Source of the DNA: Craspedostauros australis
Taxonomy: Eukaryota; Bacillariophyta; Bacillariophyceae; Mastogloiales; Achnanthaceae
DNA: 64,000 nucleotides
Assembly: GCA_026770025.1 (NCBI GenBank)
Contig: JAMXDE010000047.1
Location: 434,001-498,000 of the forward strand
Direction of reading: 5' to 3'
Position numbers and translations under genes: made by a program. Of the stretch, positions 28,467-56,664 are shown piece by piece; the first letter of the stretch is position 1; every line of letters begins with the position of its first letter. The notes under the pieces were generated by a model. It made no database searches, was not told the DNA's origin, and worked only from the letters and a program-made list of their open reading frames with translations.

Positions 28467-29697
28467 ATGAGTACCCCATCACCTCCCTCCAATATCAACC
28501 CCGCCATTGCTGCCGATGATATCGAAGCTGACATCACCAACACCAACACCACTGAGCATGAGATCATCCACAAGTCCATCCAAAACAAGTCCTTCATTGA
28601 CCACCTCAAGTTCGTCGTTGAACTCAGGGCCCACACCGTCTTCTCCACCTGGTACAACGACAAGGGAAAGGCAATCAACAACTACACCTTCCAGCAGCTC
28701 TGGGATGAAGCCGGCCAATGCGCTCACCTCCTCCGCAACAAATGGGGCATCAACAAAGGCGACCGTGTCGTCCTCTGCTACGACTTCGGTCTGCACTTCT
28801 TCGCCATCTTCCTGGGATGCCTCCGTGCAGGAGTGACTGCCGTGCTGGTCTATCCTCCCGGACCTCCGCTTGTCAAGTCGCTCACCAAGATGAACAAGGT
28901 GATCGAGGATTGCGCTCCGTCACTCATCCTCACCCAAACATCCATCAATCTCCTTCGAGCCGCCGATCGCGCCAACCCAACATCCAAGAGCCGCGCCATG
29001 TGGCCAAGCGGGGTGAAGTACCAAGTCACCGATCGCATCATTCGCCATGATGGCTTCATCATGGACAAGACCAACGGCAAGAACAAGCGAGCCAAGAAAA
29101 GCTTCCTTTCCAGCCTCATCTCTGGCCGTTCATCGTCGCCACCGCCTTCATTCGACGAACCCAACATGGTGGGATCGGATCTGGCGTTCCTTCAGTACAC
29201 GTCTGGCAGTACCGGCAACCCCAAGGGCGTCATGGTGACCCACGACGCCCTGAGAGCCAACATTGAACTATTTCACAGCAGTTTCCTCACATGCTTTGAA
29301 AAAGGTGCAAACGAGATGCAAATCCTGGGGCGATTTACCATCTTTTCATGGTTGCCTCAGTACCATGACATGGGCCTCATTCAAATGGTGATTGTGCCAC
29401 TGGCATCGAATTCCCGAGTCCACATGATATCCCCTGTCACATTCATCCGCAACCCGTTGCTCTGGGTGGACCTCATGTCCCAGCACAAGTGCCATTTCAG
29501 CGCCGCCCCTGACTTTGCGTATCGTCTGGTCGTCCGCAAATTCAACGAAGCCAACAAACAAGCCAACAAACAAGCCAACAGAAAGGCTAATTCCATCCCC
29601 AATCTGGACCTCTCAAGTGTCCTTCATCTCCAGAATGCCACAGAGCCAATCCGACTTGACACGAAAAAGGAGTTCGCCGACGCATTCTGCCCATACG
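28467..29697 (+). pseudogene. FAAL-ACP-Pls-terminal-domain gene, fragment 1 of 5 (adenylation N-terminal domain)
   Basis: The ATG at 28467 starts a 410-codon segment of an adenylating enzyme of the fatty-acyl-AMP ligase class, which activates a fatty acid as an adenylate and passes it to an acyl carrier. The phosphate-binding loop YTSGSTGNPKGVMVTH is at about residue 243, and SWLPQYHDMGLI at about 295 is typical of FAALs. The segment ends after FADAFCPY plus one base, where a TIR transposon entered with duplication CATACG. The protein continues in frame at 36852 (GLRKDW). Downstream of the junction the frame reads about 15 foreign codons to a stop at 29744. An N-terminal extension of 50 residues (TSPSPPSNIN type) precedes the domain. 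Confidence 0.85.
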
Positions 29698-29735
29698 ACC
29701 CCGTTCAGGGTTCTCATGTAGTCATTTGCGGATTT

Positions 29736-30353
29736 TTGAGATAAGCACTTAGATCATCCTATTATGTTGTAGAGAGTATATGTGTGAAGTAACAAGCTCC
29801 TGGGCCCCGTAGTTAAAAAGTTTATATTTTTCGCACCAGTCTACGTCTAGAAACGCCATGCATGCGGACGTAGGGGGGCAAATGCGGTTCGGAATCTCCA
29901 GTCGTGTTTCGGCATGCTGTCCAGTCGTGTCTATTATCGACGCTCCCACATTTCGCGTGGGTGAGGTGGTCGGTTTCGATGAAATATTGAGGATTGCGTG
30001 GTAGCGGTAGGCATGATGAGGCTGCTACTTCGTCTGGACCGTGGATCAGTGGTCGAAATCTAGAGTTTTGGGTTGGTGGGTAATCCAGATCTTGACCCCC
30101 AGCTTGACTTTCACATTGTCTTGTTCTCGGTTCTGCCGCTGTTCATGCACTGGGACGTTGAGCATCGTCCTCATCCCAATCAGCACACACTGCCTTCCCT
30201 CCATATGTCTACTCTATGGTACAGCTTCGTCCTCAATTCAGGTCTATTCCCTGTCTGTGTGTTTGGACCTTCTCTCTGCTAGTCGTCGCCAATAGCCATT
30301 GTTGGCTTCTGGCCGTTGTTCATCTGCTCTCCTCTCAGCTTTGTATTTTGGTA
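29736..30353. other. Left arm of TIR transposon, non-coding
   Basis: AT-rich arm between the left TIR and copia-3. No convincing coding frame; likely transposon internal sequence. Confidence 0.5.
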
Positions 30354-30358
30354 TCAAT

Positions 30359-30521
30359 TGTCAAACTGCACAAGTAACTACTGAAGACGTATTGGCCCAT
30401 TGTTGCGTGCCCTGGTCGGAGCTCTTGTTGTTGTATTGTGAGTCGTTCGAGGGCGATCTCTGACCAGTATTTTCGATTAATACAAATAGTAACAAGGTAA
30501 GATGTACAGTGATAGCTGTCA
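30359..30521 (-). repeat. Copia-3 3' LTR (163 bp)
   Basis: Partner of 35948-36109; preceded on the plus strand by TCAAT. Confidence 0.85.
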
Positions 30522-33500
30522 TGCCCCTTGATCTTGAGGATGACCCTTGTAGAACAGAGCTGTGATGAAAGTGGTTAGTGTTGGCCGTGCCAATGCCTTT
30601 GTGAGCATATCTGCAAAGTTCTGTGCTGATGAAACGTATACTGGAACCAGTATATCGGCTCCCACAGACTCGCGCACTTTGTGGAATAATATTGCCACAT
30701 GCTTCTTTTGTAGCAGGCTGTCTGCAATCGTCTTGTTTGAGATCACAGCATTGTTGTCACATAATGTGATAGCCAAAGACTTGACTTGGACTCCCAGCAA
30801 TCGGAGTGCGTATCTGAGTGAAATAGTCTCCTCGTTCACCGATCTCATCGCCTTGAATTCCGCGCTGTATGTGGATGTTGTGACGGATGTTTGTTGTTTG
30901 CTGGAGAAGTATACTGACGTCCTACCCAGGAATCGTATGATGCCTGTGTTAGATCTCCTGGTCACCAGATCGTGAGTGTGGTCTGCGTCCACGAATGCAT
31001 GCATTGGTAGCTCTGGGTAGATTGGCTTTGGTGATCTGTCATCAATGTCTTCCATGGCCTTGGGATATTCCTCCTTCATCTGTGTTACCAGTTCTGGGTG
31101 TGATGGCGTTGCATTGAAGTTGTCAAATATCATTGGCCTGGAATCGATCTGTGTTCGCAGAGTGGGCTTGTGCTTGAGGTAGCCCCATACTTTGAGTGCG
31201 CGTTCAAGATGTCCTTTCCATAGTGATGCAGTGAAGTGTGCAAGTGAGGAAGTTGCAAATGTGACGTTGAAATGTCCAAGCTGGACAGCCCAGTTTAGCA
31301 TGCCAATGAGCTGCTGGATTTTTTGTTGCTTGCCAGGTGTTAGTAGTTTGGAGTCGTCTATTTCCGGATGGTCCTTGTTCCTCATGGGAACATGTTGGCT
31401 GTGAAGTGATCCATGCTGGCGCTCGCCTTTGTCCAGTGCGTTTGAGATGTATTTGCTGCACCGGACGCTCCATTTGCCTTTTGATTTGTGTCCTTCGGTA
31501 CGATCTTACAATCATCGACATGTGTGCAGATGTAGTCGTCTCCGGATTCGTCTCAGAGTCTGATCCATACATCTTGGTTGTGGCGCGATGGCTTGCATCC
31601 CATGGAAGATAGTGTGTTGGCAAAGTGAGCGTGGAATCATTGGGCACTGGATCAGAGTCCATACAATGATTTCTTGAGTACAATTGTCTGGCCCTCTCTG
31701 TGATTGAATTCCTTTCCTGCTCTCGCGTATATCTTCTTGTTGGTGTAGGTGTTGACGAATGTGTTGCCAATTTCGCTGCAGAGTTGCTGGAATTTGTTCG
31801 CATCTGCGATTACATGGAGGATGCGCATGCTGGTGGAGTTGACTGTTGATGAGGACATGCGTATGTTGTCTGCGAGCTTGATGAGGCATCCTCCAGCTAT
31901 GAGCCTTGCGTTCCACCGCAGGTCTCGTTTGACCACGAAGATGAGCCTGAGCTTCATGCTCTGGTATTCAGTTGATGGTCGATGTGTGGATGGACAAAAA
32001 TCAAAGCAGGCAAGGTTGATGAGTGCATCAATCTCCTTCTTGGCTTCTGCCTTCCACATGTCGTTGTTGTTGGCTTGGTCAAGTTGTAGTGCATGCTTCA
32101 TGTATTGTAGCACTTCGCCCCCTGTACTGGAATACTGTGGCGAAGAAGTCCTGTTTTGGCTTCTTTTTCCCTGGTTGAATTTACTGTAGTACAATGACAT
32201 TGTCATTGCCGTCGATCGTGAATTGGTGTGTGCGTTTGCTACGCTGGATGCGCCGCTTGATTGCCCGGATTGCATGATTGGTCCATTGTAGCATCAGTTG
32301 CGATTGCCAATTGTGTCGTTCGTTCCGAGTTGGTGTGTTTGCAATGATGTACCGCGCCACCAGCTCCGGATGGTCCGCTCGAATGATGTCATATCAGAAC
32401 CATGTTCTTGTCTCCATACCCTATTTGGCATCGAGGTGTAGGTGTCCATTGCGGAAGCTGTGTCCTGCGATGCTGGTGATTTCAGGTTCGTTCTTGTCGA
32501 CCTTATCAATTTGATTTTGGGACATCTCGTTGTGCTCTTGTTCTGCAAGAGTGCTTTGATGCCCCTGAGTCCGGTGCTCCAAAGGATCTAGCATGGGTAC
32601 CGCCACCAAATCATTGAGCTACCCAGAGACACTGTCAGGTATTTGGCTGTCACCATTGTCATCACTGTCCAAGGTCACATCTGCAGCGTCCTTTACACTC
32701 GTGTCTTCGTCATCAGGCACAACAATTGACTGTCCAAACTATTGGTCCTCCAGTGAAGCTGTGTTTGCGTTGACCTTGATTTTCCTGACCCTCGTCAGAC
32801 CAGGTTCCGGGATGCGAGTCGCCACTCTTGACCACACGGCAATCGCATCGATGGCCTCTCGGACCTGTCGAGCGAGCTCAGCCGGCATAGTCTTTGTTCG
32901 TGCCCTGCCACCTGAAGCACTGTTTGTGGTTGTGTCAATGAGGTTGAGCCTTGCGATTCGTTGTATGTCTCCATTGCTGATGTGCGGAGTGTCTGTGTAT
33001 TCCAGAATACGCGGCTTGGCAATGTTGCGCATGAGGACTGTGCGCCACTTGATATCCTTGTCTTGTGGCAACCAGATATGGTAAGTGAATGGATCCCTGA
33101 GTCCACGCGATGCCCAAGATATAGCCTGGTTTGAATGGATGCTCAGGGAACTTTGTCATTGGCCCGAAGAACAACACAGGCTGGAAGAAAGTGGATTGGA
33201 ACATGGAAATGTTGGGCATGTTGCCATGGACGAGTTCAATTGGTGTCCTCCACTGGATGCTGCCCTTGTCCGTATAGTTCCACATGTCGATGGCATGCTG
33301 CAATCCAAAACACCAGAATTCAAGTGGCGCGGACGCCGCCCATATCAACTGATAAGCATGCCACTTGATGCCGTCGATCGCACGTTCCGCTCTGTTCTGA
33401 TTCTGGTTCATAGGCTTAGTGAAGGAGTGCTTGATCATGTGCTTGGATGTGATTGCCTTCCAGGCCTTTCCTTATTGGACCTGCGAGTTGTTGGACACAA

Positions 33501-35930
33501 GGGTATCCGGTGCACCAACATTGGAGATGAAGTCCATGAGCGTCCCTGGCGCCATTGCCTCTCTTTGGAGCGGCTTCGCCCAGATGAATTTTGGTTTGCT
33601 GTGGACAAAGAGTTGGAAGCACTTGTAATGCCAAATTGATTGCACTGTGGAAAAGAAGGGGTCTGTATTGACTCAGCCTTAGATTTGTTGCGGCTGGAGC
33701 ACTCCAGCTCGTTGTGTTCGGTACTGCCATGGGATGACTCATGACTCTGCCTCAATTGGTCTGTCCGCCAGCTGGGTGGATGCCATCATTGCCTTCTCGA
33801 CAACCTGGTGTGGGAAGTGTTTGATCACATCGTTGAAATGGATTCCCTGTTTATTCCGCCGAAGGCGCTGGTGTCTGTCGCATGTCATGATATGTTTATT
33901 AAGTGTTAGCTCATGAGCTGTGGATTTCCGAATGGGGATGCGCAGGGTGTTGCCACCATGGTTGACCAGTGGGATGCTGGTGTTGCCTGATGCAATGCGC
34001 TGTTGCCCCTGGTGTTGGATGAGGCGATCGTATACATTCAGTCCAGGCACGTGCATGTGATGTGTATTAAACAATGATTCCATCTGATGTGGGTGCTTAT
34101 CCAGAGCCACATATTTTGCCTTGATGAGGATCACATGACCTGTTGGAGATTCATATACTGCCATCGCGTTGACCATCTGGAATGCCTTGATTGGTGAGTC
34201 CATTGTTGCCCCGCAAGCATGGAATGTCTGTTGGTGTTGTCAGGTCACCACCCATCTGGATTCATGTACGATGTCGCCGTCTGCCCCTGAGTCAAATGAT
34301 GTAGCCTTGTCTACTGCTTGTTACTCTTGCCCTGCAAAGAAATTGTTCGATGGTCAGGTGGGTTCCGCTTGGCGCCGACTCTTGTAGTACCTCCAGGCGT
34401 GCACACCTGGGTCTTCTCTCTGCAGCTGTGCGCGTCTCCCCTACAGTCGCGGGGCTTGATACGTATGATGATCTCCGACTGGCAGCGAGTTGTGTCTGTC
34501 ATTGATTGTCACGAGCTGTCGTCGCATGGTCTGTATTCCTTTCCACTGCACACCAGGGATGCTTTGGCCCAGACTCTCTTGTGAGATCTTCATGTGGTGG
34601 GAAGTTGGAAGTTCTTTGCGTACTCCACTAGTTTGAGTTTCTTGGGCATGTCCTCGTTGATTGGCTTGCCGTGTTTTATGGAAGTAAAGCGCAGACTTCA
34701 TGACGAGCACCTGCATGTGGGTCAGAAGCCGGCAGAAGACGCTGTCCATCAGCAGAGACATTGCCAAGGGCCTTTGGTCCGTCGTTGGCGCCTCGTAGCG
34801 ACGCTTACGGTTGATTTACCAGTCCTTCTTCTGCTGTTAGCGCCAGTTGCGCTGTGAGGATTGTTCGATCTTGGAGTTGGCAATGGAGCTGTCGTGTCTC
34901 ATCAACTCGTTGCGGATCCAGTCAAATGACTGATTGACGTTGTGAAGCCAAGAAATCTCACTCAAGAATTGTTTGTCATTGATGTTGTAAAAGAGATTTA
35001 CGGTGGTCTCCTTCTTGTTCATGACCTTTCCATTGTCTTCCATCATGCGGATGGACTTCAAGAAGGCGTTGACAAACGTGCTGAACAGCTTTGATCTATC
35101 CTAAATAGGCTTTGCCAGGAGCTCTTCCTGCTCAGCCATGATCTCTGCCTTGCTCTCCTTGAATTTGTACATCCGGACCAGTGCCTGGAAGGTGTCATGA
35201 CCACTGCCAATGTGCGATGGCACAATGAAATCCGTGTCACCTCATAGGTCTTGCTGTTGGAGATGGTGTAGAATTGGTTGTTGATCTGTGAATTGTAGTT
35301 GGTTGGTTGCTTGGGTTCTATATACTTCGCGTATCTCATTGTTGCCATTGATCTGGCAAGTGTGATCTTCCAATCGTGTCAGGCTTTGTTCAGTCCAGAG
35401 AAGATCAGAGTTTTGGGCATGGATACCTTGTCCTCATGCCAACCTATTGGTGTTGCAGTTGGTCATGCAAGGGTGGCTCAACATCATGGAGACATCATTG
35501 CTATCTTGTTGTTTGCCACTGGGGGCTCCACCACCGCTGCATCTTTGATGGCCATCTTGGTTCTTGTACAAGCCGTTGCATTTGCAACAGGGGTCTTGAT
35601 CTTTGGAGGCACATAGTTGTCTGTTCAATGTATTCATCGACGGTGGTCCAGTTGGTGGTGGAGTCAATTGTATTGGATCTGGCATATGCAAAGATGTGTT
35701 GGATGTTTCCAATGTTGATTGCGGTGAGGGTTGGTGCAAAGGTCAAGGAAGCCACAATTGCGCCATCTGGATGCTGGATGGCTTGGTTGATGCGCCCAAG
35801 GGTGGATGTGATGAAGGTCATCTCCTAGTAGTCAAGCTGGACTAGCTCCTTGATGATGGGTGCAACAGTTCTGTTGTTGATTGCTCTTGCCATGGTGAAG
35901 GTTTGTTTGTAAGTGGTAAGCTTGGCGGCA
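30522..35930 (-). pseudogene. Copia-3 gag-pol remnant, multiple frameshifts
   Basis: Reading on the minus strand: gag-like fragments at 35821-35058 with TSTLGRINQAIQHPD and a residual zinc-knuckle-like CCKCNGLY. Protease region at about 34300-33739. Integrase C-terminal part at 33438-32935, with RAERAIDGIKWHAYQLI and KPGYILGIAW. RT pieces at 32275-31652 (MWKAEAKKEIDALINL, LKKSLYGL). RT active site THVDDCKIV at about 31510, readable only in a third frame. RNase H at 31385-30519 (HAFVDADHTHDLVTRRS, STYSAEFKAM, LCDNNAVIS, NFADMLTKAL). The RNase H portion is the longest open part (288 codons). The order is that of copia elements. Not functional. Confidence 0.85.
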
Positions 35931-35947
35931 AATCACAACTCTTAACC

Positions 35948-36109
35948 TGTCAAACTGCACAAGTAACCACTGAAGACGTATTGGCCCATTGGTGCATGCC
36001 CTGGTCGGAGCTCTTGTGTTTCATTGTGAGTCGTCCGAGGACGATCTCCAACCAGTATTTTGGATTTATGTGATTAGTAAAAAGGTAAGAAGTACAGTGA
36101 AAGCTGTCA
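35948..36109 (-). repeat. Copia-3 5' LTR (162 bp)
   Basis: Partner of 30359-30521; followed on the plus strand by TCAAT. Confidence 0.85.
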
Positions 36110-36114
36110 TCAAT

Positions 36115-36807
36115 GAACCTGCACGTACTCCAATCACAACACGAGAAACAACAAGGTAATAATAATAATAACTCACAATGACAAAACCCATAGTAGGGAA
36201 TGCCCTGAGGGCATTAGACTCGCCTGCACAGGCCTTACGGCGCAGGCTAGGTCGAGTATAACAAGGTAAACAATACCGCCGCCATCAGTCTCTTTCCGCA
36301 CCATGCCAACAGCTCAGCAGATGACCTCGGTATCCCATGTCCAAGCGGAGCAAAGCAGGTTACACTGGACTTTGTACTAACAAACTAAGCTTGGTGTAAA
36401 ATAATATTGTACTATATTTTGCATACCATAGGATAAGTCACTGTGCTCCATTACATGATGTTATGTTGTTTAGCATTCGCAAGTGTCGCTGTTGCAGCCG
36501 ACGCGCAGGGATGCCACCACCAACGCTGTGCTGCTCAACACAACACACACAAGCGAGGAAACGTCCAACCGAGCCAAATCACCAACAACGTGAGGAATCA
36601 ACACGACGCCGAACCTGGCGCAACTTCACCATCAATACAGTTGGACACCATTGCAGTCTGACATCGACCGTCAATGACGTCATCATTTTCGTCTACGGTG
36701 AAGACAAGCCAGCCATGTTGTTGTGTCGTAGAAGCTAGCTAAATTAATCTAACCCTACTAAACAACACGCAAAATTATGATCTAAAAATATCACGTTTTA
36801 CGATGTC
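36115..36807. other. Right arm of TIR transposon, non-coding
   Basis: Includes a small inverted repeat CCTGAGGGC...GCCTGCAC...GGCGCAGGC around 36200-36250 and AT-rich sequence near 36740-36800. No supported gene. Confidence 0.5.
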
Positions 36808-36851
36808 AAATCCGCAGGATACTACACGACTTCGCTGAATGGGGTCATACG

Positions 36852-37440
36852 GCCTGCGCAAGGATTGGTTCCTCGTGGCGTACGGACTAGCTGAGAACGT
36901 CGTTGGCACCTGCTACAATCACGACTTTTATCTCTCAACCATCCGCGAAGGTGAAGATCTCCACCCGTTTGTGGCTATCGCCGAATGCAGCAATCTGCAC
37001 AGCTCCATCGATATCATCATCGTGGACCCGGACACCTGCGTCCAACGTCCAGACAACGTCACAGGAGAGATCTGGGTCGCCGGGGCCTCTGTGACAGCCG
37101 GATATTACAACCAACCCAAGCTCACCGCCGAAACCTTCCAAGCTACACTCCAAGGCAATGCATCATCCGATGCTAGCAGCAAGATGTACTTGCGCACAGG
37201 TGACTACGGTTTCTACCAAGACGACTACCTCTACATCTGCGGCCGCAAGAAGGACATCATCATCGTCAACGGTGTCAACTACTACCCGCAAGATATCGAG
37301 CACACAGTCGAGGAGGCATCATCCGCTGTCCGTCCAGGCTGCGTCGCTGCCTTCTCGTCCGACGATTCAGGCAACGATGGACAGCTCGAGATCGTATTTG
37401 AGATCCGAGCCAATCACGCAGACGATGCCGCAACAGTCTG
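36852..37440 (+). pseudogene. FAAL gene, fragment 2 of 5 (adenylation domain, second half)
   Basis: Continues fragment 1 in frame after the CATACG duplication (codons about 411-606). It contains VAYGLAENVVGT (core A5 region), TGEIWVAGASVTAGYYNQP, and the A7/A8 region LRTGDYGFYQDD followed by ICGRKKDIIIVNGVNYYPQDIE, the hinge to the C-terminal subdomain. The 589 bases contain no stop in this frame. The fragment ends at CTG (37438-37440), duplicated at 38599-38601 around the MITE. Running on into the MITE the frame stops at about 37501. Confidence 0.85.
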
Positions 37441-37566
37441 GGACACGCGGCAAAATGTCTGGCACGATCAAAAAATCTCTTTCCTTAAACCAAATAAATA
37501 GCTTCGGCGTCTTTTGATATTGTGTAGGTCATCACAACGAAATTGATAAACTTATGCTGTCATGTG

Positions 37567-37712
37567 TCATTGTCGGGAATGTCGGGAATGTCGGGCGCTT
37601 TGTCGGGAATGTCGGGAGTTTTGTCGGGAATGTCGGGTGTGTTGTCGGGAATGTCGGGTGCTTTGTCGGGAATGTCGGGCGTGTTGTGGCGATTGTCGAG
37701 AATGTCGGGAGT
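37567..37712 (+). repeat. GTCGGGAAT minisatellite, left array
   Basis: About seven 21-base units of the form TGTCGGGAATGTCGGGNNNTT. They are open in all three plus frames, for example as (V/F)VGNVGX. The same array in the same orientation is at 38338-38455. Probably subterminal transposase sites; inferred. Confidence 0.8.
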
Positions 37713-38337
37713 CTCGGCACCACACATCTGCGCCTGGATGGGCAGAGTCCACGGGGAACAGACAGACGAAACAACCGAAGAACGAAAATGCATGGTGGTA
37801 ACAAAGGAAACAGACACACACAGGACGAAACCGACACACTCGCGATCATGTTGTGGATGTGTACTTGACTGGCACAAGTTGAAGCACGACTGGAGATTTT
37901 GAACTGCAGATGCCCCTTTGCGTCCGCATGCCAAACGTTTCTAGTCATAGGCGACAACGAAACAATAACTTTGTATTTACAAGTCCCAGGAGCTGAAACA
38001 TTTACGAATCTACTCTACACACCATAATAGGATGACATAAGTGCTTATATTTATAATATTACAATCACTACATGAGTACCCTGCATTGCATACATGGACT
38101 GTGATGTGATGCGAGGCGACATGGTGTGTTGTTGTTGTGGTGTCAAGCGAAAAAGCTGGCCGTTGTTTGTCCAAACCGCGAATCCGCACGGCAACAACAA
38201 ACAACGCGCTCATCCGATTTGGGTGGCATTTTGTGTGTGTTCGGGTTGAAACTTCATGGATCGCAACAGCACTCACGCTCCGCCAACATCATCCAAACAG
38301 ATTGTCAACTTTGGTCGAGTATGTCGACTGTTGTGTG

Positions 38338-38455
38338 AGGAATGTCGGGAATGTCGGGAATGTCGGGCGCTTTGTCGGGAATGTCGGGTGTCTTGTCGGG
38401 AATGTCGGGTGCTTTGTCGGGAATGTCGGGAGCTTTGTCGGGAATGTCGGGAGTT
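38338..38455 (+). repeat. GTCGGGAAT minisatellite, right array
   Basis: Five to six 21-base units, same orientation and consensus as 37567-37712. Confidence 0.8.
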
Positions 38456-38601
38456 TATCTGTTACGACTCAAGGTTCTCTCAAGGGAGTAATTGACGCAA
38501 TACGCGGCAATGATGTATGACCAATTCATAATATCATGATATTATGTTACTTAACACGTTCCCGGTTGTAGCAAATCCCGACTTTCTGCCGAGTGTCCCT
38601 G

Positions 38602-46820: not shown

Positions 46821-46928
46821 TATATATCACACGGACTATAACTGTTAGGTCATGCGCCGGGGGCGCTTTGATTCCGCCTCGTTTATTCTACGTGTGGGCA
46901 CGCAGCGGGAACGGATGTATGGGTGGTC

Positions 46929-49900
46929 TTAGTGTGGTGTGACCAGAGCTTGCCGTGCTGGGTTGCCGGTGGGGCCGGCGGGCAGTGCGTTGTCAGTGGG
47001 AGCGTCACCGGGGCGGTTGTTGCGGCTGTGGTTTCGCATCCAGTTCACCAGCACTGGGTCTGCTGGCGGTGCGTCGGTGCCAAGCCCCTGACGCATCGCC
47101 TGGACCCACTGAATGAGCTGCGTGGCGCGTGCTTGCTGCGGGGGCTGTTCCCAGAGCGGGCGGAGGACTGCAGGGATGGAGGTGGCTGGCCGCGCCGTCA
47201 TCGCTTGGAAGTATTGACAGAGCTCAGGCATCATGTCGGCTGATGTTAGGGATGCCTTGGCGTCGTTCCGGTCCTGCCATTGTGCAAGGGCAGTGTGCCA
47301 CATCAGGTTGGTGACGCTGGCCTGCCAGTCGTGCAGCAGACGTGGGCTGCGTCGGCGGCGGTGCGGCGCCATGGGGGGCGCTTGTTCCCGCCATTGTCGT
47401 GCCCATCCTCCCCAGAGCATGGCCGTCCATCCAACCTTGGACTGCTGGAGCTGTATGGATTTGGTTGGAGAGTCTCTTATGCCAGATGGTGGAAGGCCCC
47501 CTGTGGTGATGCGTCGGATGGCTGTGCACACGAGTTGGGCGACTGCCGGCGGCGTCGTAGGCGGTCGCACGATTGACCGTACCTTTTGGATCGCCTTGGC
47601 CCATATGGCTTGGCTGGCGGCACTGGGGCACATGAGGATATGCTGGTTGTCCTCAGGCTGGCCGCACCGGGGGCACCTGTCTGTGCGTTCTTGCTGCTGC
47701 CGCGCCATGTTCTTGCCACTGGCACTGGTGCCCGTCATAAGTTTCTGTATGGTCCGGCGTTTGCCGCCTCTCCATTTCCTGGAGGTGGTTTTCATAGGTT
47801 CCCAGCTCACTTCAGCGGACTCGGCCTTGCCCCATCGTGCGCACCACTTTGTCTTGACGCAAGCTGGGTTGGTTGCCTGCGATACTGTCCAATAGCCCAG
47901 GTCTGTCACCGGCCCGCATACTGTGTGGAGGCTCCAGCCTGCAGTTGGCACCACCATTCGTGTTGTGTTCCATCCGGGTCCCAAGGATATGCTGTTCCAG
48001 CACTGCCCTGCGAGATCATCAGCCTGCACGTTCATGACCTCCCAGTCGGTGAGCTGGCGTCCATCGCCGTCGGCGTGGCCTTGAACCTCCTGCTGTCGGA
48101 ACGTGACAGGCGACCTACGCAGGCACCTGACCAGCTCAGACCACAGATCATAGTCCGGCTTGTTGGGGTCTGGCCATTGCGTTGGGTCCACAGCTCGCAG
48201 CGCCCGGTTGTTGTCGCAGGCGATGGTGGCTTGCCCGCGTATGCTTGCCCATTCGGCCACCGACGTGATCATCCACACTGACATTAGCACTCCGGCGAGC
48301 TCAGCACGGTTGGAGTCGGTGGGGTGCGATCCCTCTGGCACGGCTGACATTGCAAGCATCTGGTGTCGATCGTCGGCGGGGTCACGCTGGATGATCGCAG
48401 CTGCCGATCCGTGGTTATGCTTGGCTGAAGCATCGCTGCATGCAGAGCAGGTACCCTCTGCTATGGATCGCACGATCGAGTGTATCTCTCCGAGGACGTG
48501 CACGTCTGCAAGAATTCGCACTGCGGCCGGCCCCTTCTGGTGCATCCATGCTCTCAGCGTGGTGGGAAGTGGCTGCTTCCGGATGTGCCCTCGGGACGTG
48601 ATGGCCATTCCAGATCGCCGGGGCGCTCGATCAATCACCTCGACCGGAGCTGCTGGAGAGCTGTTGGGCATCGCGGGCAGGCCTGGCGTGAGCACAGATC
48701 CGTCGGGTCGTATTGACTCACGTCTTTGCGGGATGGTTTGCCATGGTCCAAGCCGTCGTCGTATGTGCCACCCGGGGCGGTCGGTCGCCGCAAGCGCCAT
48801 CAACACTTGGTCCCACGCTTCCCACGCCTTCTTGGAGACTGTCCCTACCTTCGGCCAGCAGATCGGGCCAGCTGGTAGTTGGATGCGCTGCAGGATCTGA
48901 GACCGGATTCGGTCGCCCTGAGCCGTTGCGATGTCGGACAGCCACATCACTCTCAGATGCAGTCTAGCCACATTGGCCAGGGCGAGAGTGTTTCTGTGCA
49001 CACCGGCGCTGATCGCCAGATTCATGACTGTGTCGTCTCCTTCTCGTGGCAGCGAATTGGGATGGTCGAGGTTGGTCATGGTGATGCCGATGTCGGCTGC
49101 AGACTGGAATGTGTTCTGCCACCACGTTGGGCTGGTCCACGTCCTCCACTCACGCTCCGTTTGCTGGAGTGCGCCTGGGAGACCGGTCCATAGTTCGAGG
49201 TGACGTAAAGACGCGCGGAGCAGTCGTCCTGTCGCCGTTGGCTGTTCGAAGTGCTTCATGATCATGGACAGGTGCGCTACCACTTGGCCGTAGTACAAGT
49301 GTTGCATTCCGAACCCCATGACATCCACATGCCCAAAGACGTAGTCCCTAGCAATGGTTCGGGCAATGCCCATTGACGGCAGCGCTGTTGTGAGAGCCGC
49401 ACTCATCACGCGCTCCCATTGCAACCGGGACATTGTCGTGGCAGGGGCAGAGTACGAGAGCGCCGGCCATAGGACTGCCTTGGCAGCGATTTCGACATCC
49501 TGTCGTTGGATTCGTGACGTTCGGATCCGTTCCGCCCAGGCCCTCGACTTCTGCATCAGGTATTCCGCATGCTCTGTCTGCCTGCCATCGCGCCTCGACA
49601 CCATCCCTAGATACTTAGATGCAGATCTCGGGCTGGTGATGGTTAGTTCTGCCCTGCCGCCTGTGGGCGTGCTCATGTTGATGCCCCGGCTGGGCGTAGT
49701 GAGATCATAGACCCATTTGGTGCGGCTCCATTTGAATCGCATCAGTTGCCAGAAGCTTTTGGACGGCTCCAACGCACCTCCGGTGGCTGTGAGGAGTTCG
49801 TCCCAGCTGCGCACTGCTGCTTGGAATATGGCAACTTGTTCGTTGGGGTGCACGGGAGGTAGGCTGTGCATGATGTTGGCGTCGTCGACATAGGCCGTGC

Positions 49901-52541
49901 CCACCACCGTGTGCTGCTCGTTCGTGATCGGGTTGTGCACTTGCAGTCCGTGTCCTTGGGATCTCATACTGTCTATGATGGCGGAGCTGATAAGAAGCCA
50001 TCCGGTTGGGGCAGATCCCAGTCCTTGAACTAATCCCTGCAGGTAGTTGCGGCGTTGCCTGCCGGAGTATGATGATGTCGACGTCCCTGCCGATGTGCGA
50101 ATTCTGTGGGTCATCGACTGGATCGTACTGAGTGTACTCACAATGGGCGGGGCTGGCACTCCCTGTCGTTGAAGAGCAAGACTGAAGACGGGGTGTGCGA
50201 TCCTGTCGTAGCACCCTTTCGCGTCGTTCGAGCACACCGCGTAGTGATTGCCGGTGATCCTGTGGATATCGTCGATGAGCGTTGTGTTGAGCAGTACCTC
50301 TGGGGCCGTGTGCGACTTCCGGCTGCCGTACTGTTCAGATGCTATCGTGCCGTTGGCTTCAGCATGGGCGCGTGCTTGCTTGCCCAGGAGCCGGTTGTTC
50401 ATGTTGTAGTCTCCTTCCATCAGTCCGATGGTCCTCGTTTTGGTTACGGAGAGATCGCCAGGCTTTTTGCGGAGCTGTATGTCCACGCACTGCTGCCATC
50501 GCTTGTAGCTGTATCCGGTGCGGTAGGGGATCTCGCGCATGATGGCGTCGATGGTGGCCAGCTCGTCGTCGGTTGAGTTGACCTTCCAGCAACCGAAGTG
50601 CACTCCGGATGGTCCTGAGGATGTGCTTTCCTTTATCCTTGCCCATCCCTGGGAGTGGTCGGCAGTGCTGATCTGTAGTTGTTGGGGTTTCCATGCTGTC
50701 CTGTTTGGCGGATTGCTGAGCGCCTGTAGAATGTCTCTGGTGTTGGCTTTGACTTGCGTCGGGACGATTCCGCGCAGTACAGCAGTGGCTGCCGTGCTGG
50801 TACCGTACCGTCCAAGTGTGTGTTTGAGTGGTCGTTGGCACACCTCTGCTTGCCATGCTTGGCTGTACTTATCAACGTTGTTGTTGCAGCATGCCTTGGC
50901 AACGTCTTCTCCCGATGTGAGCAGACGGCCACTTCCACCGGGTCCATCGTCCACCACAATGGAGACTTGTGCGTCGGATCCCTCGGCCTGCAGCGACCAC
51001 TTGATGCGTCGGTACGTCGCCTTTGTTTCTTCCCGTTGCAAGATCTGCGTTCTGTACTTGTCCGTGTCTCGTCCTGACTCCTTCTCGTCCGCCTCGTCTT
51101 CCGCCAGGAACGTTCGTCGGTGGGCGTCTGCGTGTTTCTTCTCTTGTTTGTACTTCTTCCATGCTGCATTCCTGTGGTGCTGCATTTCTGTCACCGACAT
51201 GTCGCGCGTGAGTCTTGTCACTCCTCCTTTCTGCTTGGCCTTGTCAATGGTTCTCCCACTGATGTGATGGCCCTTCCTGCGTTTTATGCTGATGGTCCAG
51301 AACTTGTGCTCCCAGTGGAGCTTCGCCAGCATCGGGGAGAATGGGACCTTTCCTGCTCGCACTCTTCTACACTTGCTTTCTGCTTGCAGCATCGCTGTGA
51401 TCCGGTCGTTGTCCAATTTCTCTAGCTGCTGCGCTTGGGATGCTGTGACTGGCCCCGCTCCTATGGCAGTGTCCAGCTCGCGCGCTCGGTGAAGCAGCTG
51501 GAGCTTCTTGGCCTGCGCCGTGTATTCCGCCTTGTACTTGCGTACTGTGGATGGTTGGCTCATCTGGAGCCTACGTCCTCGGAATGGTGTGGTGGGTTGT
51601 TTGGTTGGCCCAAAGAGATTGCTTTCTCTGATGTCCATCCACACCATCCGGTGGTCCCAGCAGCCGTACGCCGTTGCTCCAAGCTGGTTGGGCTTCACGT
51701 CGCTGGTGGTCCAGATGCCGTCGATGGGAACGTGGCTCCGGTTTCTTATCATGGTTGCGTAGGGTCGGTCGATTGTGTTGGTGTGGTGTTCGTGTAGCCC
51801 TGCGGCCGTCAGCATGTCAGTGATCTTCGATCTCCGAACGTCCATGTTGACGTCGCCGCCGACGATGATGGACTCTCCTGCGTGTCGCCATTGTTCAATT
51901 TGTGTACGCAGGTCTTGGATGAGAAGGTCGATGGGATCGAGCGTGGATTGCCTCTGTGCAGCTCTGATTGCTTGTTGATTGTAGACTGTTCCCGCGGTCT
52001 GTGTGGATTTGGTGGGAATGTACACTGCGACTGTGCGTACTTTGATGCCATGCTTTCCTTGGAGAAGGACGCTTGCCCATCTGCCGCATTTCTCAGGGTC
52101 GCTGTCGCGCGAGAGTACTCGGCCAGCTATCTTCCCATGCACAACAATCGCTGTGCCTCCCCATTGTCTCGGGCTGTTGGACTGGGTTTGGCAGTGCGCT
52201 GTGTTCGTTTTCGTCATCTTCAGGTGCTGTTCTGCTCTGCGGCACAAGGTTGCATCTGTGGGTGTCTTGCTCCAGTTGATACCCACTTCTGTCAGCAGGA
52301 GTACATCCACTTGGTGCTGCTTGATGGTCTGCCACAGATCATCATTTTTTGGGTCGGTTTTGTCTGGTGGAATGCCGCCTGCGTTGAGGGTGGCAATCCT
52401 GATTTGTGTGGTTGGCTTGTCGTTGGTCTGGTGCCCCAGGTGGTGGTGTTGGCCGGTCGAATCATCCGATCTCGAGATTCCGGCATTGGTGGGTCCGTTG
52501 CGGTTCGGGCTGGACTGTGCCCGCATGCGGCTGACTATCAT
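46929..52541 (-). CDS. LINE ORF2: APE endonuclease, reverse transcriptase, RNase H, zinc finger (1870 aa)
   Basis: Enzyme for target-primed reverse transcription. The ATG at 52541 overlaps the ORF1 stop as ATGA. Domains: apurinic-type endonuclease at residues about 48-320 (IRIATLNAGGI, LLLTEVGINW, SIIVGGDVNMD, GCWDHRMVWMD). Reverse transcriptase at about 650-1000, with NDAKGCYDRI (770) and GTAYVDDANIM (885). RNase H at about 1390-1530, with SNRAELAGV (1413), IACDNNRALRA (1444) and VQGHADGDGR. CCHC-type finger CPRCGQPEDNQHILMC at about 1627. A Trp-rich C-terminal tail (WEQPPQQARATQLIQWVQAM) follows. No stop or frameshift over 5.6 kb. Confidence 0.93.
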   Translation of the reverse strand: MIVSRMRAQSSPNRNGPTNAGISRSDDSTGQHHHLGHQTNDKPTTQIRIATLNAGGIPPDKTDPKNDDLWQTIKQHQVDVLLLTEVGINWSKTPTDATLCRRAEQHLKMTKTNTAHCQTQSNSPRQWGGTAIVVHGKIAGRVLSRDSDPEKCGRWASVLLQGKHGIKVRTVAVYIPTKSTQTAGTVYNQQAIRAAQRQSTLDPIDLLIQDLRTQIEQWRHAGESIIVGGDVNMDVRRSKITDMLTAAGLHEHHTNTIDRPYATMIRNRSHVPIDGIWTTSDVKPNQLGATAYGCWDHRMVWMDIRESNLFGPTKQPTTPFRGRRLQMSQPSTVRKYKAEYTAQAKKLQLLHRARELDTAIGAGPVTASQAQQLEKLDNDRITAMLQAESKCRRVRAGKVPFSPMLAKLHWEHKFWTISIKRRKGHHISGRTIDKAKQKGGVTRLTRDMSVTEMQHHRNAAWKKYKQEKKHADAHRRTFLAEDEADEKESGRDTDKYRTQILQREETKATYRRIKWSLQAEGSDAQVSIVVDDGPGGSGRLLTSGEDVAKACCNNNVDKYSQAWQAEVCQRPLKHTLGRYGTSTAATAVLRGIVPTQVKANTRDILQALSNPPNRTAWKPQQLQISTADHSQGWARIKESTSSGPSGVHFGCWKVNSTDDELATIDAIMREIPYRTGYSYKRWQQCVDIQLRKKPGDLSVTKTRTIGLMEGDYNMNNRLLGKQARAHAEANGTIASEQYGSRKSHTAPEVLLNTTLIDDIHRITGNHYAVCSNDAKGCYDRIAHPVFSLALQRQGVPAPPIVSTLSTIQSMTHRIRTSAGTSTSSYSGRQRRNYLQGLVQGLGSAPTGWLLISSAIIDSMRSQGHGLQVHNPITNEQHTVVGTAYVDDANIMHSLPPVHPNEQVAIFQAAVRSWDELLTATGGALEPSKSFWQLMRFKWSRTKWVYDLTTPSRGINMSTPTGGRAELTITSPRSASKYLGMVSRRDGRQTEHAEYLMQKSRAWAERIRTSRIQRQDVEIAAKAVLWPALSYSAPATTMSRLQWERVMSAALTTALPSMGIARTIARDYVFGHVDVMGFGMQHLYYGQVVAHLSMIMKHFEQPTATGRLLRASLRHLELWTGLPGALQQTEREWRTWTSPTWWQNTFQSAADIGITMTNLDHPNSLPREGDDTVMNLAISAGVHRNTLALANVARLHLRVMWLSDIATAQGDRIRSQILQRIQLPAGPICWPKVGTVSKKAWEAWDQVLMALAATDRPGWHIRRRLGPWQTIPQRRESIRPDGSVLTPGLPAMPNSSPAAPVEVIDRAPRRSGMAITSRGHIRKQPLPTTLRAWMHQKGPAAVRILADVHVLGEIHSIVRSIAEGTCSACSDASAKHNHGSAAAIIQRDPADDRHQMLAMSAVPEGSHPTDSNRAELAGVLMSVWMITSVAEWASIRGQATIACDNNRALRAVDPTQWPDPNKPDYDLWSELVRCLRRSPVTFRQQEVQGHADGDGRQLTDWEVMNVQADDLAGQCWNSISLGPGWNTTRMVVPTAGWSLHTVCGPVTDLGYWTVSQATNPACVKTKWCARWGKAESAEVSWEPMKTTSRKWRGGKRRTIQKLMTGTSASGKNMARQQQERTDRCPRCGQPEDNQHILMCPSAASQAIWAKAIQKVRSIVRPPTTPPAVAQLVCTAIRRITTGGLPPSGIRDSPTKSIQLQQSKVGWTAMLWGGWARQWREQAPPMAPHRRRRSPRLLHDWQASVTNLMWHTALAQWQDRNDAKASLTSADMMPELCQYFQAMTARPATSIPAVLRPLWEQPPQQARATQLIQWVQAMRQGLGTDAPPADPVLVNWMRNHSRNNRPGDAPTDNALPAGPTGNPARQALVTPH

Positions 52542-55150
52542 GGCGACTGTCCCCCATTAGGCTGCGGGGGTTCGCCGTTAGGCTTGCCGAGTTCCCTTCG
52601 GAGTGCTTGGACCTGTGCCAGTAGCTGGGCTTCCCGGGTTTGCTGCTGACTGTATCTCGTGTCGGTGCCTGTTCGGAGTATGCCTTCGGGGCTGGCGGAA
52701 TCGTGGTGTGGGGCTCTCGTTGATGGCTCTGGGTCACTCTGGTGGCTGTCGGTCTCCTTCCTGGGGGCTACTGTGTAGGCAGAATCGATGGACCGGTTGG
52801 TTGTGCCGACAGTGGAGTTGGGGTTGAAGAGGCTTCTGTTGTCGAGGGCTGCTGGTCGATGAGTGGTGGGCATCATGTCCGGGATGTTGGTGATTATCAC
52901 ACTGGCCGGGAATTCTTCGTCAGCAATGTCTTCGAGATTGTGGACGTCTGGGGATGTGTAATCGTTGGTGGCCGGGTCATGCACGATGTTGAGACTGGCA
53001 ATCCACACCTCGGGGCTGAACCATTTCTCGGCCTTCTCTCCCACTTTGTGGCGCGCGATTGCCGGTAGCAGACTCATGTAGTGCTTGGCCTCCTCCTGGT
53101 ATTCAGGAAAGGCGTGGGCCACGACTTGGTCGTCTGTTCCTCTTGCGCGGTCCACGCTGTGAAAGATCCTCTTGCCTTTGTCGTTGGTCTCTCTGAGGAT
53201 GAGCTTCCTGAGCGTGATGGACTTGTTGTCACGGCCTTTGACTTTCTTGTCAAGGTGGATCACTCCATCGGCGTCGGAGTACTCAATCACTGACAGTATA
53301 GCCTGATGCTTGGCTACCAGACCTTCTCTGAATTCGGCCTTCTTTCGTGACATCTGTTCGTACTTTTTGTCTGGTAGGAACCTGAGGTTGGTTGCTCCTG
53401 GTCGCTCTTCCCTGGTGTTGAACAGATTGGCCACCTCGGTGACTGCGCTGTATGCCTGTGATCGTTCGACTTCGAGTTTGACTGCCCTCCATGGTTGCAC
53501 TGTCCAGTGCCTCTTGCCCTCTCTGTACTTCTCTCTGGTTTCCGTGCTGACCTGAACGATGTTTTTGATCTTGCCTCCCACTCGGATTTGGCTGTTGTTG
53601 CGTCGGAGGCTTCTGTTGATGATGTTGACTGTGCCATCGACGTCGGTGAACCCTCCGGAGTACAGCAGGAATCCGATTTCTTTGACTTCTTCTGCGTCCT
53701 GGAGCTGCGCCTCGTACAACCCTTCGTGTTCATTGTAGTAGTAGGCGTTGAGTTCTGAGTTCCTGTCGGCCGTGATGTCGAATGGGTTTTCCCTGGTGGT
53801 AATGCGTACTTTGGCGTAGGTGATTCCAGTCTCGCCGGACGGTGCTCGGAGTCCGGGGAAGAATGTTCGAAGTTCGTCCATTCTTTCTGGAATCTGCCCG
53901 GAGTGTGCAATGTGCGGTCCCGTGTTGCTGGACTCTCTCCATGGCAGTATCACCGCGGACAGATCGATTCTGCGGACTTGTCTGAACCAGCGTCGGATGC
54001 GATCTCTGACTGCTGCCGTTGTGTCTTCCTCGGTTCTGTCGACGTTGAGCTTGATGGTGAATCGGGTCGTGAATTCGTGTCTTGGCGGCGCTATCTTCGT
54101 TTGCGACGTGTTGGACTCTTCGTCGGAGCTGACTGAGTGATCATCTGTTCTTGCCTCTTTTGTTGCTTGTCGATGCTTGCGTTGGTGGGCGTTGGTGATG
54201 CCGGAGTCTGTGGATGAGTCATTGCTTCGTGCCGATCCTGTGGACTGTGAACTGCTTCCGCTTTGCTGGCTGACTCGATGCAAGTCTGTGGTGCTCTTCG
54301 GCGATTTGAATCTGGTTCTCTTCGTTGGCTGTCTGCTGGTATATGAGTCGCTGTCGGTGCTGAGCGATTCTGTGTTCAGATGCGTTGGCATTGAGGCTGC
54401 GGCTGGTCCATGTGATTCTTGTGGGTCAGTTGGGGAATCATCATTGGATTGTAGCGTGAGCCCTCCCATGCGTGTTTCGTTACCATCGGCGTCTTCGGCA
54501 GGTGCTGTCCCTAGGTCGTAGTTGGATCCGAGGACTCGGTTCGCTGCTTTCCAGACTTTGACTGCGCGTGCGCTTTTCACTGTGCCGTTGCTGTTGAGAT
54601 GTGCGCGGAATACTTCGTGTGGGTTGGTAGATGCCACATTGAGCACGAACTGTAGGAGACGCAACCTCGTGGGGTCCTTGTTGGGTAGTGTGATCGGTCC
54701 GAAGGCGGTCACTCTGCCATCTGCAAGGTCCCTGAAAAAGTGCTCCCACTGCTTGATTGTTGGATTCTCTCGGTCCGCTGTTGCCTCGTCTGCGTTATAC
54801 CATATCGCTCGCGCCCTCCATGCTGCCTTCGCGGCTCTGTCGATGGATCCGTCGCCGGTGGCTTTCTTGAATGGTACTACTTCGACGCCTGTCTTGTTGG
54901 CTGCTGTCTTGAACGTGTTGGATCGAGGTCTGTATGTGATGGACACATCGTCGGGGTCGTTCTCCTCCATTCCGCCGTCGTATGGGATCGCTCTTTTTGC
55001 TTGCCGTCGAGCTCGGTGCTGGTTGCTTGCATCTATACTTCCTTTGGCTGGGGGTTTGTCGGGCTCCTTGGTCGGAGGCTCCAAAGTTGGTACTTCCTCG
55101 GGTTCGGTCTCTTCGCGGTGGCTCGTGTTGGGTTGGTTGTTCGAAGTCAT
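52538..55150 (-). CDS. LINE ORF1 protein, 870 aa
   Basis: Probable RNA-binding or chaperone partner of ORF2, as in other two-ORF LINEs. The first ATG is at 55150. Residues about 1-60 are Glu/Pro-rich and acidic. About 110-200 (WYNADEATADRENPTIKQW onwards) is helical, and about 230-360 is Ser/Thr/Asp-rich. From about 370 (FTTRFTIKLNVDRTEEDTTA) the sequence looks folded, with VRDRIRRWFRQVRRIDLSAV and a globular region to about 720. The end (AQLLAQVQALRRELGK) is a short coiled coil. I saw no CCHC knuckle, unlike many ORF1 proteins. It is larger than usual ORF1s. The stop overlaps the ORF2 start by four bases (ATGA). Confidence 0.82.
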   Translation of the reverse strand: MTSNNQPNTSHREETEPEEVPTLEPPTKEPDKPPAKGSIDASNQHRARRQAKRAIPYDGGMEENDPDDVSITYRPRSNTFKTAANKTGVEVVPFKKATGDGSIDRAAKAAWRARAIWYNADEATADRENPTIKQWEHFFRDLADGRVTAFGPITLPNKDPTRLRLLQFVLNVASTNPHEVFRAHLNSNGTVKSARAVKVWKAANRVLGSNYDLGTAPAEDADGNETRMGGLTLQSNDDSPTDPQESHGPAAASMPTHLNTESLSTDSDSYTSRQPTKRTRFKSPKSTTDLHRVSQQSGSSSQSTGSARSNDSSTDSGITNAHQRKHRQATKEARTDDHSVSSDEESNTSQTKIAPPRHEFTTRFTIKLNVDRTEEDTTAAVRDRIRRWFRQVRRIDLSAVILPWRESSNTGPHIAHSGQIPERMDELRTFFPGLRAPSGETGITYAKVRITTRENPFDITADRNSELNAYYYNEHEGLYEAQLQDAEEVKEIGFLLYSGGFTDVDGTVNIINRSLRRNNSQIRVGGKIKNIVQVSTETREKYREGKRHWTVQPWRAVKLEVERSQAYSAVTEVANLFNTREERPGATNLRFLPDKKYEQMSRKKAEFREGLVAKHQAILSVIEYSDADGVIHLDKKVKGRDNKSITLRKLILRETNDKGKRIFHSVDRARGTDDQVVAHAFPEYQEEAKHYMSLLPAIARHKVGEKAEKWFSPEVWIASLNIVHDPATNDYTSPDVHNLEDIADEEFPASVIITNIPDMMPTTHRPAALDNRSLFNPNSTVGTTNRSIDSAYTVAPRKETDSHQSDPEPSTRAPHHDSASPEGILRTGTDTRYSQQQTREAQLLAQVQALRRELGKPNGEPPQPNGGQSP

Positions 55151-55250
55151 TTTGCTTTGCTGTTGTTTGTGTTGTGTTAGGGGATTAATTAGTTTTTATT
55201 TTTCTTTGGTTTGGTTTGTCGGAATTCCGATTCTATGACAATGACAACGA

Positions 55251-56664
55251 CAACAACAACAACAACAACGACGATCCGCAACAAGCAGATGCAAGCACAG
55301 CTGCAGACATTGCCGGAAGCGTAACACCAAGCGACAACGATGGCAGATGGATCATCCTGGGTGGCATGAAGATGACATGGCTGCTCGTCGAGCTGTACAT
55401 GACCTTCTGCTGCTTCCTGATCTCTGATATCTTGGTCCGCGATGACCTCCGAGACTGGAGATACTCTAAACTGCAATATTGGGTTGTATCCATCGGTCTG
55501 TCATCAGTGCTGCTAGTGATATCCAGCATCCTACTCAAGTGGGTGATGATCGGCAAGAAGAGACCGGGCAAAGCAAGGACCGGTATCTGGAGTGAATTCG
55601 CAGACTGGGCATGCGACTATCACTTCGACCGAGCATGCTTGATACTCTATGGTCTGACCACCAATTCGATCATTTGGAACCTGGTCCACATGGCTCATGG
55701 ACTGGACATCGATCTGCGATCAAAGATCTTCGGTGACAGCTTCCATCCATCCGAAGTCGACCTCATCACCATCCGACGATCGTTCGTATCCATCGTCACC
55801 TTCCACACCAAGGAAAACGGTAAATATGGGAGAACCACGATCGAGGACAGCAGCATCGGGATGCTGACTACTTGCGCGCCGCGTGTGACAGTCCGCAATG
55901 CTTTGGTCTCACCACAGACACACATCACAGAGAGCATCATCCATCCAAAGCCCGATCCGCGCAACGAAAGAATATCAGATTTGAAATTGACCCGGATTAT
56001 TGTGGCGAGCACATTGCTGTACGTTGTCATGTTGCTCGTTGCGGCAATCAGCTTCGTCCCAGCCTTTGAGCTATGGATGAATGTTGTCAAGCCACAATCA
56101 TCAGTCGAGGCGGCCCCATTGGTAGTGCTATCGGTCATCATCCAGACCATTGTGTGGACCATGCTCTTGCGTGTGCACTCGCTGATCACATTCGCGGGAA
56201 GCAATGAGCGAACGACGCCATGGTGTTTGCCGCTGTACATGGTGTACCAATCATTCACTTACTCCGTCCACAATTGGTCGCTGTATCCCATCCTCTCGGG
56301 AACACCGATGATCAACAGCGTTCTCCGCTTTCGTGGGGTCAACGTTGAAGGTCGCTTGCTGTACTTCGGCTTCCGCCTCTACGAGCCGACATACGTCACC
56401 TTCGCAGATGGATGCGTCGTCGACGAGTGTTTAATCAGCGGCCACTGTGGTATATTCTCCCAACTGACTTTGGGGAAGTCGTACGTCAGCGGAGTGTTGC
56501 ATCGAAATTGTGCTGTCATGATGGTGGCGAAGACAGCAGCAACAGCGGACAAAGCAAGGTTGGCTGAACACGGACCTCAGCATCTCCTCATGAACTCGGA
56601 GCAATCGCTGGGTGGAAGGCAATCGCAAGCCTCCCAGGAGATGGTCCATTCAGATACAGCTTGA
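55251..56664 (+). pseudogene. FAAL gene, fragment 5 of 5 (second half of Pls-type terminal domain)
   Basis: Resumes in frame after the 15-base duplication (codons about 1044-1514) and ends at the native TGA. It begins with an Asn/Asp run, then repeats the architecture of fragment 4: helices WLLVELYMTFCCFLISDIL and QYWVVSIGLSSVLLVI, a block ending FADWACDYHFDRACLIL, beta-helix-like VSIVTFHTKENGKYGRTTIE, a second membrane group (LYVVMLLVAAISFVPAF, VLSVIIQTIVWTMLL), and VEGRLLYFGFRLYEPTYVTF with a final beta-helix (CLISGHCGIFSQLTLGKSYV). The tail is Gln/Ser-rich. Together with fragment 4 it gives a terminal domain of about 700 residues, the usual size. Confidence 0.83.

What the first reader, a model, noticed from the sequence alone, without database searches (positions are those of the whole stretch)
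28467..56664. One FAAL-ACP-Pls-terminal-domain gene split by four different transposons, with all five pieces still in frame
Fragments 28467-29697, 36852-37440, 38602-39163, 46072-46820 and 55251-56664 join exactly when one copy of each target duplication (CATACG, CTG, CATCC and a 15-mer) is kept. They give 4545 nt, 1514 codons plus stop, with no internal stop or frameshift. Four mechanisms (TIR transposon, MITE, copia, LINE) have hit one gene. An intact frame after this many hits means either a very rapid recent burst on one haplotype, or that at least some insertions are tolerated through splicing or trans-assembly of separate polypeptides.
Basis: seen in the sequence. Interest (0 to 1): 0.92.

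Follow-up and report, generated by a model that had tools for sequence, protein, structure and literature searches.

The report
Gene copy freshly broken by transposons
One copy of a large family of fatty-acid-activating genes has been cut into five pieces by four jumping-DNA insertions; it looks like a gene that died too recently to have decayed, next to dozens of intact sister copies, and not like a gene that works in pieces.

Summary
Four inserts with perfect 6-, 3-, 5- and 15-bp target duplications separate five stretches whose phases fit (4545 nt, no internal stop). Searched apart, the stretches match consecutive residues of one paralogue. Among 42 family copies counted in this 74.8-Mb genome, 32 are one open frame with no break seen, 6 are split and 4 truncated or rearranged. 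The copia insert's LTRs differ at 1 of 520 sites; at that age a dead 4.5-kb gene has a 0.41-0.59 chance of no stop or frameshift, but 0.01-0.07 at the upper age limit. Three sister copies carry equally young LTR elements. dN/dS of 0.21-0.34 shows past constraint. No insert can be removed exactly by GT-AG splicing. Best reading: a recently killed paralogue in a transposon-active genome. Ages of two inserts are poorly bounded; transcripts, reads and alleles could not be examined, and the organism was not identified.

The parts
28467..29697 (+). piece 1: start codon and N-terminal part of the FAAL (adenylating) domain
   Evidence: PF00501 163.2 bits over the open frame; 96% identical to residues 50-434 of the C5 paralogue
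29698..36845 (.). insert E1: 7148-bp TIR transposon (superfamily not determined) carrying an old copia element; 6-bp duplication CATACG (29692-29697 and 36846-36851)
   Evidence: ends and flanks; other copies with the same ends, pieces 92-96% identical; no transposase found in the ORFs scanned
30359..36110 (.). old copia element nested in E1: LTRs 30359-30522 and 35948-36110, 88% identical, 5-bp duplication TCAAT
   Evidence: weak RVT_2 match in an ORF on the - strand (E 0.0012, 18.9 bits, below the cut-off of 31.6)
36852..37440 (+). piece 2: C-terminal part of the FAAL domain
   Evidence: 95% identical to residues 434-630 of the C5 paralogue; FAAL models
37441..38598 (.). insert E2: 1158-bp non-autonomous TIR element, PIF/Harbinger-like, 3-bp duplication CTG
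   Evidence: three full-length copies 95-96% identical on C17; the two looked at are flanked by CTG and CTA; a longer relative with similar ends carries DDE_Tnp_4
38602..39163 (+). piece 3: end of the FAAL domain and carrier-protein (ACP) domain
   Evidence: PF00550 19.8 bits, just under the cut-off; 67% identical to the C5 paralogue, 87% to a C44 paralogue
39164..46066 (+). insert E3: copia retrotransposon, LTRs 39164-39683 and 45547-46066 with 1 difference in 520, 5-bp duplication CATCC, long frames of 574 and 1362 aa open
   Evidence: (RVT_2 151.9 bits)
46072..46820 (+). piece 4: hydrophobic segments and hexapeptide-like stretch resembling the terminal domain of Pls/PosA synthetases
   Evidence: TIGR02353 59.1 bits, below cut-off; weak matches of its end to hexapeptide acetyltransferases (E 0.013 and above); 96-98% identical to the C5 paralogue
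46821..55235 (-). insert E4: LINE with endonuclease and reverse transcriptase, frames of 1875 and 885 aa open, 15-bp duplication TGACAATGACAACGA
   Evidence: PF03372 and PF00078; two other full-length copies 99% identical, flanked by long duplications of their own
55251..56664 (+). piece 5: C-terminal part with stop codon
   Evidence: 92% identical to residues about 1062-1535 of the C5 paralogue; no family match

Best explanation
This is a recently inactivated member of a large, single-exon family of FAAL-ACP enzymes with a C-terminus that weakly resembles that of Pls/PosA synthetases. The gene was under purifying selection until recently. Transposition by unrelated elements then cut it into five pieces; once the first element had silenced it, further insertions were no longer selected against. 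The pieces are still in frame because too little time has passed for stops or frameshifts to build up. Shown: the inserts, their target duplications and types (superfamily of E1 open), the young age of the copia insert, past constraint, and other recently hit copies. Inferred: loss of function, the order of the hits, the youth of E1 and E2, and relaxed selection as the reason for four hits in one copy.
For: Perfect duplications and continuity. LTR mismatches: window copia 1/520, C5 insert 1/778, C2 insert 1/774, C20 insert 2/526. LINE with two full-length 99% relatives. At 0.1% divergence 0.5-0.9 disabling changes are expected, P(none) 0.59-0.41; at 2% P(none) is 0.000 as printed, so the copy cannot have been dead for most of its separate history. 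dN/dS 0.34 overall against C5 and 0.21-0.30 against ten other paralogues. N:S on the window branch 42:43, on the C5 branch 31:37, Fisher P = 0.74. 32 of 42 copies are one open frame with no break seen.
Against: At the upper limit of the copia age (about 0.54%) P(no damage) falls to 0.07-0.01. Four hits in one of 42 copies exceeds a uniform Poisson rate (9 hits in 42 copies; P about 0.003 for any copy with four or more); the dead-gene explanation of this clustering is inferred. E1 and E2 are only 92-96% identical to their nearest held copies. By piece, dN/dS is uneven (0.12-0.54 against C5; 0.59 for piece 4 against L030). No RNA data were available.
Confidence: 0.88

Rival explanations
1. The inserts behave as introns: transcripts are spliced across them and a normal or nearly normal protein is made.
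For: All pieces are open and in phase; frame-keeping GT/AG pairs exist within 60 nt of every insert's junctions (10, 15, 3 and 17); E3 offers one exact AT-AC pair.
Against: No insert can be removed exactly by GT-AG. The number of near pairs is about or below that at 400 random places in the window (mean 15.6). Inserts are 1.2-8.4 kb against Introner family medians of 30-654 nt (PMC9860276, passages). Most sister genes are single long frames.
Confidence: 0.03
2. The pieces are expressed as separate polypeptides that assemble into a working enzyme.
For: The pieces roughly follow FAAL N-part, FAAL C-part, ACP, and two C-terminal parts.
Against: The first cut falls inside the adenylating domain, between PF00501 positions 313 and 316. 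Starts and promoters for pieces 2-5 were not looked for. 32 sister copies with one open frame make it unnecessary.
Confidence: 0.02
3. The gene died longer ago, but gene conversion from intact sister copies keeps overwriting the pieces and removes stops and frameshifts.
For: The copy is a mosaic: over 60-codon windows the best of 19 paralogue frames changes repeatedly (L029, L041, L040, L038, L032, L030, L034, L036 and L033 each lead or tie somewhere), and three windows are 100% identical to a sister copy; dS to C5 runs from 0.04 to 0.44 by piece.
Against: The copia LTRs date that insert as young on their own. The mosaic can predate the insertions. No whole piece is identical to another copy (best protein identities 96, 95, 87, 96 and 92%).
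Confidence: 0.06
4. Assembly artefact: the region is a chimera of unrelated reads.
For: Only one assembly was available; reads were not.
Against: Four perfect target duplications of lengths seen at other copies of the same elements for E1, E2 and E4, and element ends identical to those of independent copies. A chimera would not give these.
Confidence: 0.01

Closest known systems
Transposon-disrupted young pseudogenes in multigene families (general knowledge, no call)
   Same: Insertions with target duplications in one of many paralogues; sister copies intact; no decay yet
   Different: Four elements of four kinds in one copy, with every piece still open, is at the high end
Introners (PMC9860276; passages seen)
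   Same: Transposons inside coding sequence; TIRs and short target duplications for two of the inserts
   Different: No exact GT-AG boundaries, 1.2-8.4 kb long, two of the four are retrotransposons
FAAL enzymes and Pls/PosA-type synthetases (NCBIfam models)
   Same: FAAL N-terminus, carrier domain, weak match of piece 4 to the Pls/PosA terminal domain
   Different: Eukaryotic, about 42 copies, below the curated cut-offs of these bacterial models; no bacterial or archaeal relative of piece 4 confirmed in one scan

Membership tests
recently inactivated paralogue | intact relatives in the same genome | tested here: met
   32 of 42 copies are one open frame with no break in the protein matches; N-terminal splits could be missed where the match starts late
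recently inactivated paralogue | disrupting events young relative to decay | tested here: inconclusive
   met for the copia insert (LTR 1/520, P(no disabling change) 0.41-0.59, 0.07-0.01 at the upper age limit); E4 has 99% relatives; E1 and E2 not bounded
recently inactivated paralogue | no functional product | not testable with these tools
   no RNA or protein data
Introner-like intron | splice sites that remove the insert without changing the frame | tested here: not met
   no exact GT-AG option for any insert; inexact frame-keeping pairs at about chance, so inexact splicing is not excluded
copia retrotransposon (E3) | LTRs, RVT_2 reverse transcriptase, 5-bp duplication (the 5 bp recalled) | tested here: met
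LINE (E4) | no LTR, endonuclease plus reverse transcriptase, long variable duplication | tested here: met
PIF/Harbinger (E2) | DDE_Tnp_4 transposase in a longer relative, TIRs, 3-bp duplication | tested here: met
   DDE_Tnp_4 38 bits (cut-off 24.8) in L085, between ends like those of E2; E2 itself carries no transposase; that DDE_Tnp_4 marks PIF/Harbinger is recalled
Pls/PosA non-ribosomal synthetase | terminal domain above the curated cut-off | tested here: not met
   59.1 bits against 423.1 for piece 4 alone; none for piece 5; pieces were scanned apart, which lowers the score
FAAL | FAAL models and structures as best matches of the adenylating domain | tested here: met
   NCBIfam: fatty-acid-AMP ligase models lead, below their bacterial cut-offs; PDB: saframycin synthetase B and polyketide synthase chains lead, then FadD23, FadD28 and FadD32 AMP ligases

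The most novel reading that the evidence does not exclude
The split copy is still used: a family under heavy transposon fire keeps members usable through unusual splicing, or through gene conversion from intact sisters, so that interrupted copies act as a reservoir of parts for a mosaic enzyme family.
Probability: 0.05. Interest if true: 0.75.

Novelty: new member of a known kind. Interest (0 to 1): 0.25.

Why it matters
It is a clean snapshot of gene death in progress: insertions that can partly be dated, in a copy that was under selection until recently, with sister copies as controls. It also points to a eukaryote with about 42 copies of a FAAL-ACP enzyme, a mosaic family with several other freshly hit copies, which would suit a study of birth, conversion and death of such genes.

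Tried and rejected
Subtelomeric location as the reason for heavy transposon load: not supported. 10 of 42 copies lie within 100 kb of a contig end against 9.4 expected (P = 0.47), and 23 within 250 kb against 20.4 (P = 0.18). Contig ends need not be telomeres.

Relaxed selection on the window branch: not seen. N:S 42:43 against 31:37, P = 0.74. Piece 3 was left out of this polarised count, 5 differences were unresolved, and outgroups differed by piece (L011, L034, L030); most changes predate the inserts, so the test has little power.

Exact GT-AG splicing of the inserts: rejected. Near-junction splicing: about chance.

Is one of the window's elements what split the C5, C2 and C20 copies? None of the four matched those loci. 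For C5 and C2 only about 1 kb at each end of the insert was held. C5 and C2 carry one LTR family in opposite orientations; C20 carries an LTR element too.

Superfamily of E1: no transposase in 13 distinct ORFs scanned out of 49 ORFs of 70 aa or more listed for the stretch (which includes frames of the gene pieces); left open.

Organism: the small-subunit rRNA search failed twice. A fungal zinc-cluster search gave 3 matches over the cut-off, too few to decide. Not identified. A scan of bacterial and archaeal genomes with an alignment of piece 4 confirmed no relative (22 pattern matches, 0 confirmed).

Literature: among the rows listed (15 of 50, 12 of 757, 12 of 30, 8 of 70, 8 of 60, 5 of 5) no title or abstract start named this family. 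Only passages of PMC9860276 and PMC8070225 (FAAL-containing clusters in Glomerales and Diversisporales) were seen; the rest were search listings. This does not show that the family is undescribed.

Full report
What was checked. The lengths sum to 4545 nt, the codon phase carries through all four junctions, and no piece holds an internal stop. The four target duplications are perfect. The pieces, searched separately, align to consecutive residues of the closest paralogue frame, C5: 50-434, 434-630, about 631-816, 815-1066 and about 1062-1535. Codons on either side of each junction therefore belong together.

The inserts. E1 (7148 bp) is a TIR element with a 6-bp duplication. Fifteen end stretches of nine other copies were looked at and 14 showed the element's end; with the window this gives 13 hexamers from ten copies, counting identical pairs once. 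All 13 have TA at their centre and fit YNTANR, so its landing place in the gene reflects its own target preference. The duplications are identical in the window, C4 and C41; those of C21a and C21b differ by one base, and the C53 flanks differ by two. E1 contains an old copia element (LTRs 88% identical, duplication TCAAT), and at least five other copies with both ends (C41, C4, C53 and two on C21) carry the same cargo. E2 (1158 bp) has three full-length copies, 95-96% identical, on C17; two were checked and have CTG or CTA duplications. Longer relatives with similar ends exist, and the interior of one carries a DDE_Tnp_4 transposase, so E2 is a non-autonomous PIF/Harbinger-like element. E3 is a copia element with LTRs identical at 519 of 520 sites; full-length copies of it elsewhere were not looked for, though its LTR ends turned up. 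E4 is a LINE with endonuclease and reverse transcriptase and two full-length 99% copies flanked by long duplications of their own.

The family. The search with piece 1 gave 49 rows. I count 42 copies after setting aside two N-terminal fragments that belong to the C5 and C2 copies, a 57% relative on C18, and four weak matches to other adenylating enzymes. Of the 42, 32 have one open frame (1498-1626 aa, stop to stop) with no break in the matches; 6 are split (window four times; C5, C2, C20, C8 and C34 once each); 4 are truncated or rearranged (three on C54, one on C2). Two of the 32 (C27, C24) show a TAA inside a match that begins before the start codon; for C27 it lies upstream of the ATG, for C24 this was not checked. 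A hidden N-terminal split, as in C5, could be missed where the match starts late. The C8 copy has a TGA inside, so not every split copy is still open. What split C8 and C34 was not established. The C5 and C2 copies are split near the N-terminus by related LTR elements in opposite orientations, each with one LTR mismatch in 778 and 774 bp; C20 is split by an LTR element with 2 mismatches in 526. The copies are not concentrated near contig ends.

Age and selection. With the copia insert at about 0.1% divergence, a dead 4.5-kb gene would have collected 0.5-0.9 disabling changes, so finding none has a probability of 0.41-0.59; at the upper age limit of about 0.54% it is 0.07-0.01, and at 2% 0.000 as printed (this rests on assumed indel rates of 0.1-0.2 per substitution and a transition weight of 2). 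dN/dS against C5 is 0.34 overall (0.12-0.54 by piece), and 0.21-0.30 against ten other paralogues (11 loci used). Changes on the window branch are no richer in non-synonymous ones than those on the C5 branch. The gene was therefore constrained for most of its separate history and broke recently.

Splicing and split function. No insert can be removed exactly by a GT-AG intron; E3 offers one AT-AC pair. GT/AG pairs that would keep the frame within 60 nt of the junctions number 10, 15, 3 and 17 for E1-E4, against a mean of 15.6 at 400 random places in the window. The first insert cuts the adenylating domain itself. Nothing found favours splicing or assembly of separate polypeptides, though only RNA can exclude them.

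Clustering. Nine insertions in 42 copies give a mean of 0.21; four in one copy is unlikely under a uniform rate (P about 0.003 for any copy). The simplest account is that selection removes insertions in working copies but not in one already dead. Other transposon genes lie in the same window (a copia frame at 19357-23376 and a piggyBac-like transposase at 25220-26554), so local density seems high; it was not measured.

Mosaic. Along the pieces the closest of 19 sister frames changes repeatedly. Recombination or conversion among sisters is part of this family's history; it is a rival reason for open frames, but is not needed given the young age of the copia insert.

Limits. The organism is not identified; reads and RNA were not available; genome counts are lower bounds by the tool's own statement. 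A step that would have needed one joined coding sequence was left out.

Noticed in passing
29698-36845, nested element 30359-36110: A TIR transposon that swallowed a copia element and spread as a composite: at least five other copies with both ends carry the same cargo. Its target hexamer has TA at the centre in 13 of 13 hexamers.
   Followed up: partly
37881-38083: The middle of insert E2 resembles the terminal 200 bp of E1 in reverse (74% over 206 bp), so E2 probably holds a small nested relative of E1.
   Followed up: no
L085 (G000:C25:53250-58200): Interior of a longer relative of insert E2, with a DDE_Tnp_4 transposase on the - strand.
   Followed up: partly
window pieces and loci L029-L048: The enzyme family is strongly mosaic: the closest paralogue changes along the gene, pointing to frequent recombination or conversion.
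   Followed up: partly
L029/L049, L030/L050, L037: Three sister copies are split by LTR elements with LTRs 99.6-99.9% identical; two belong to one family in opposite orientations.
   Followed up: partly
G000:C54:122374-141883: Three truncated copies in a row, about 9 kb apart, matching only as far as the carrier-domain piece, with stops there.
   Followed up: no
25220-26554 and 19357-23376: A piggyBac-like transposase (DDE_Tnp_1_7) and a second copia frame of 1339 aa.
   Followed up: no
27803-28235: The stretch upstream of the gene resembles, at 78%, sequence at both ends of the insert in the C8 copy (L052, L053), so it is probably part of another transposon.
   Followed up: no
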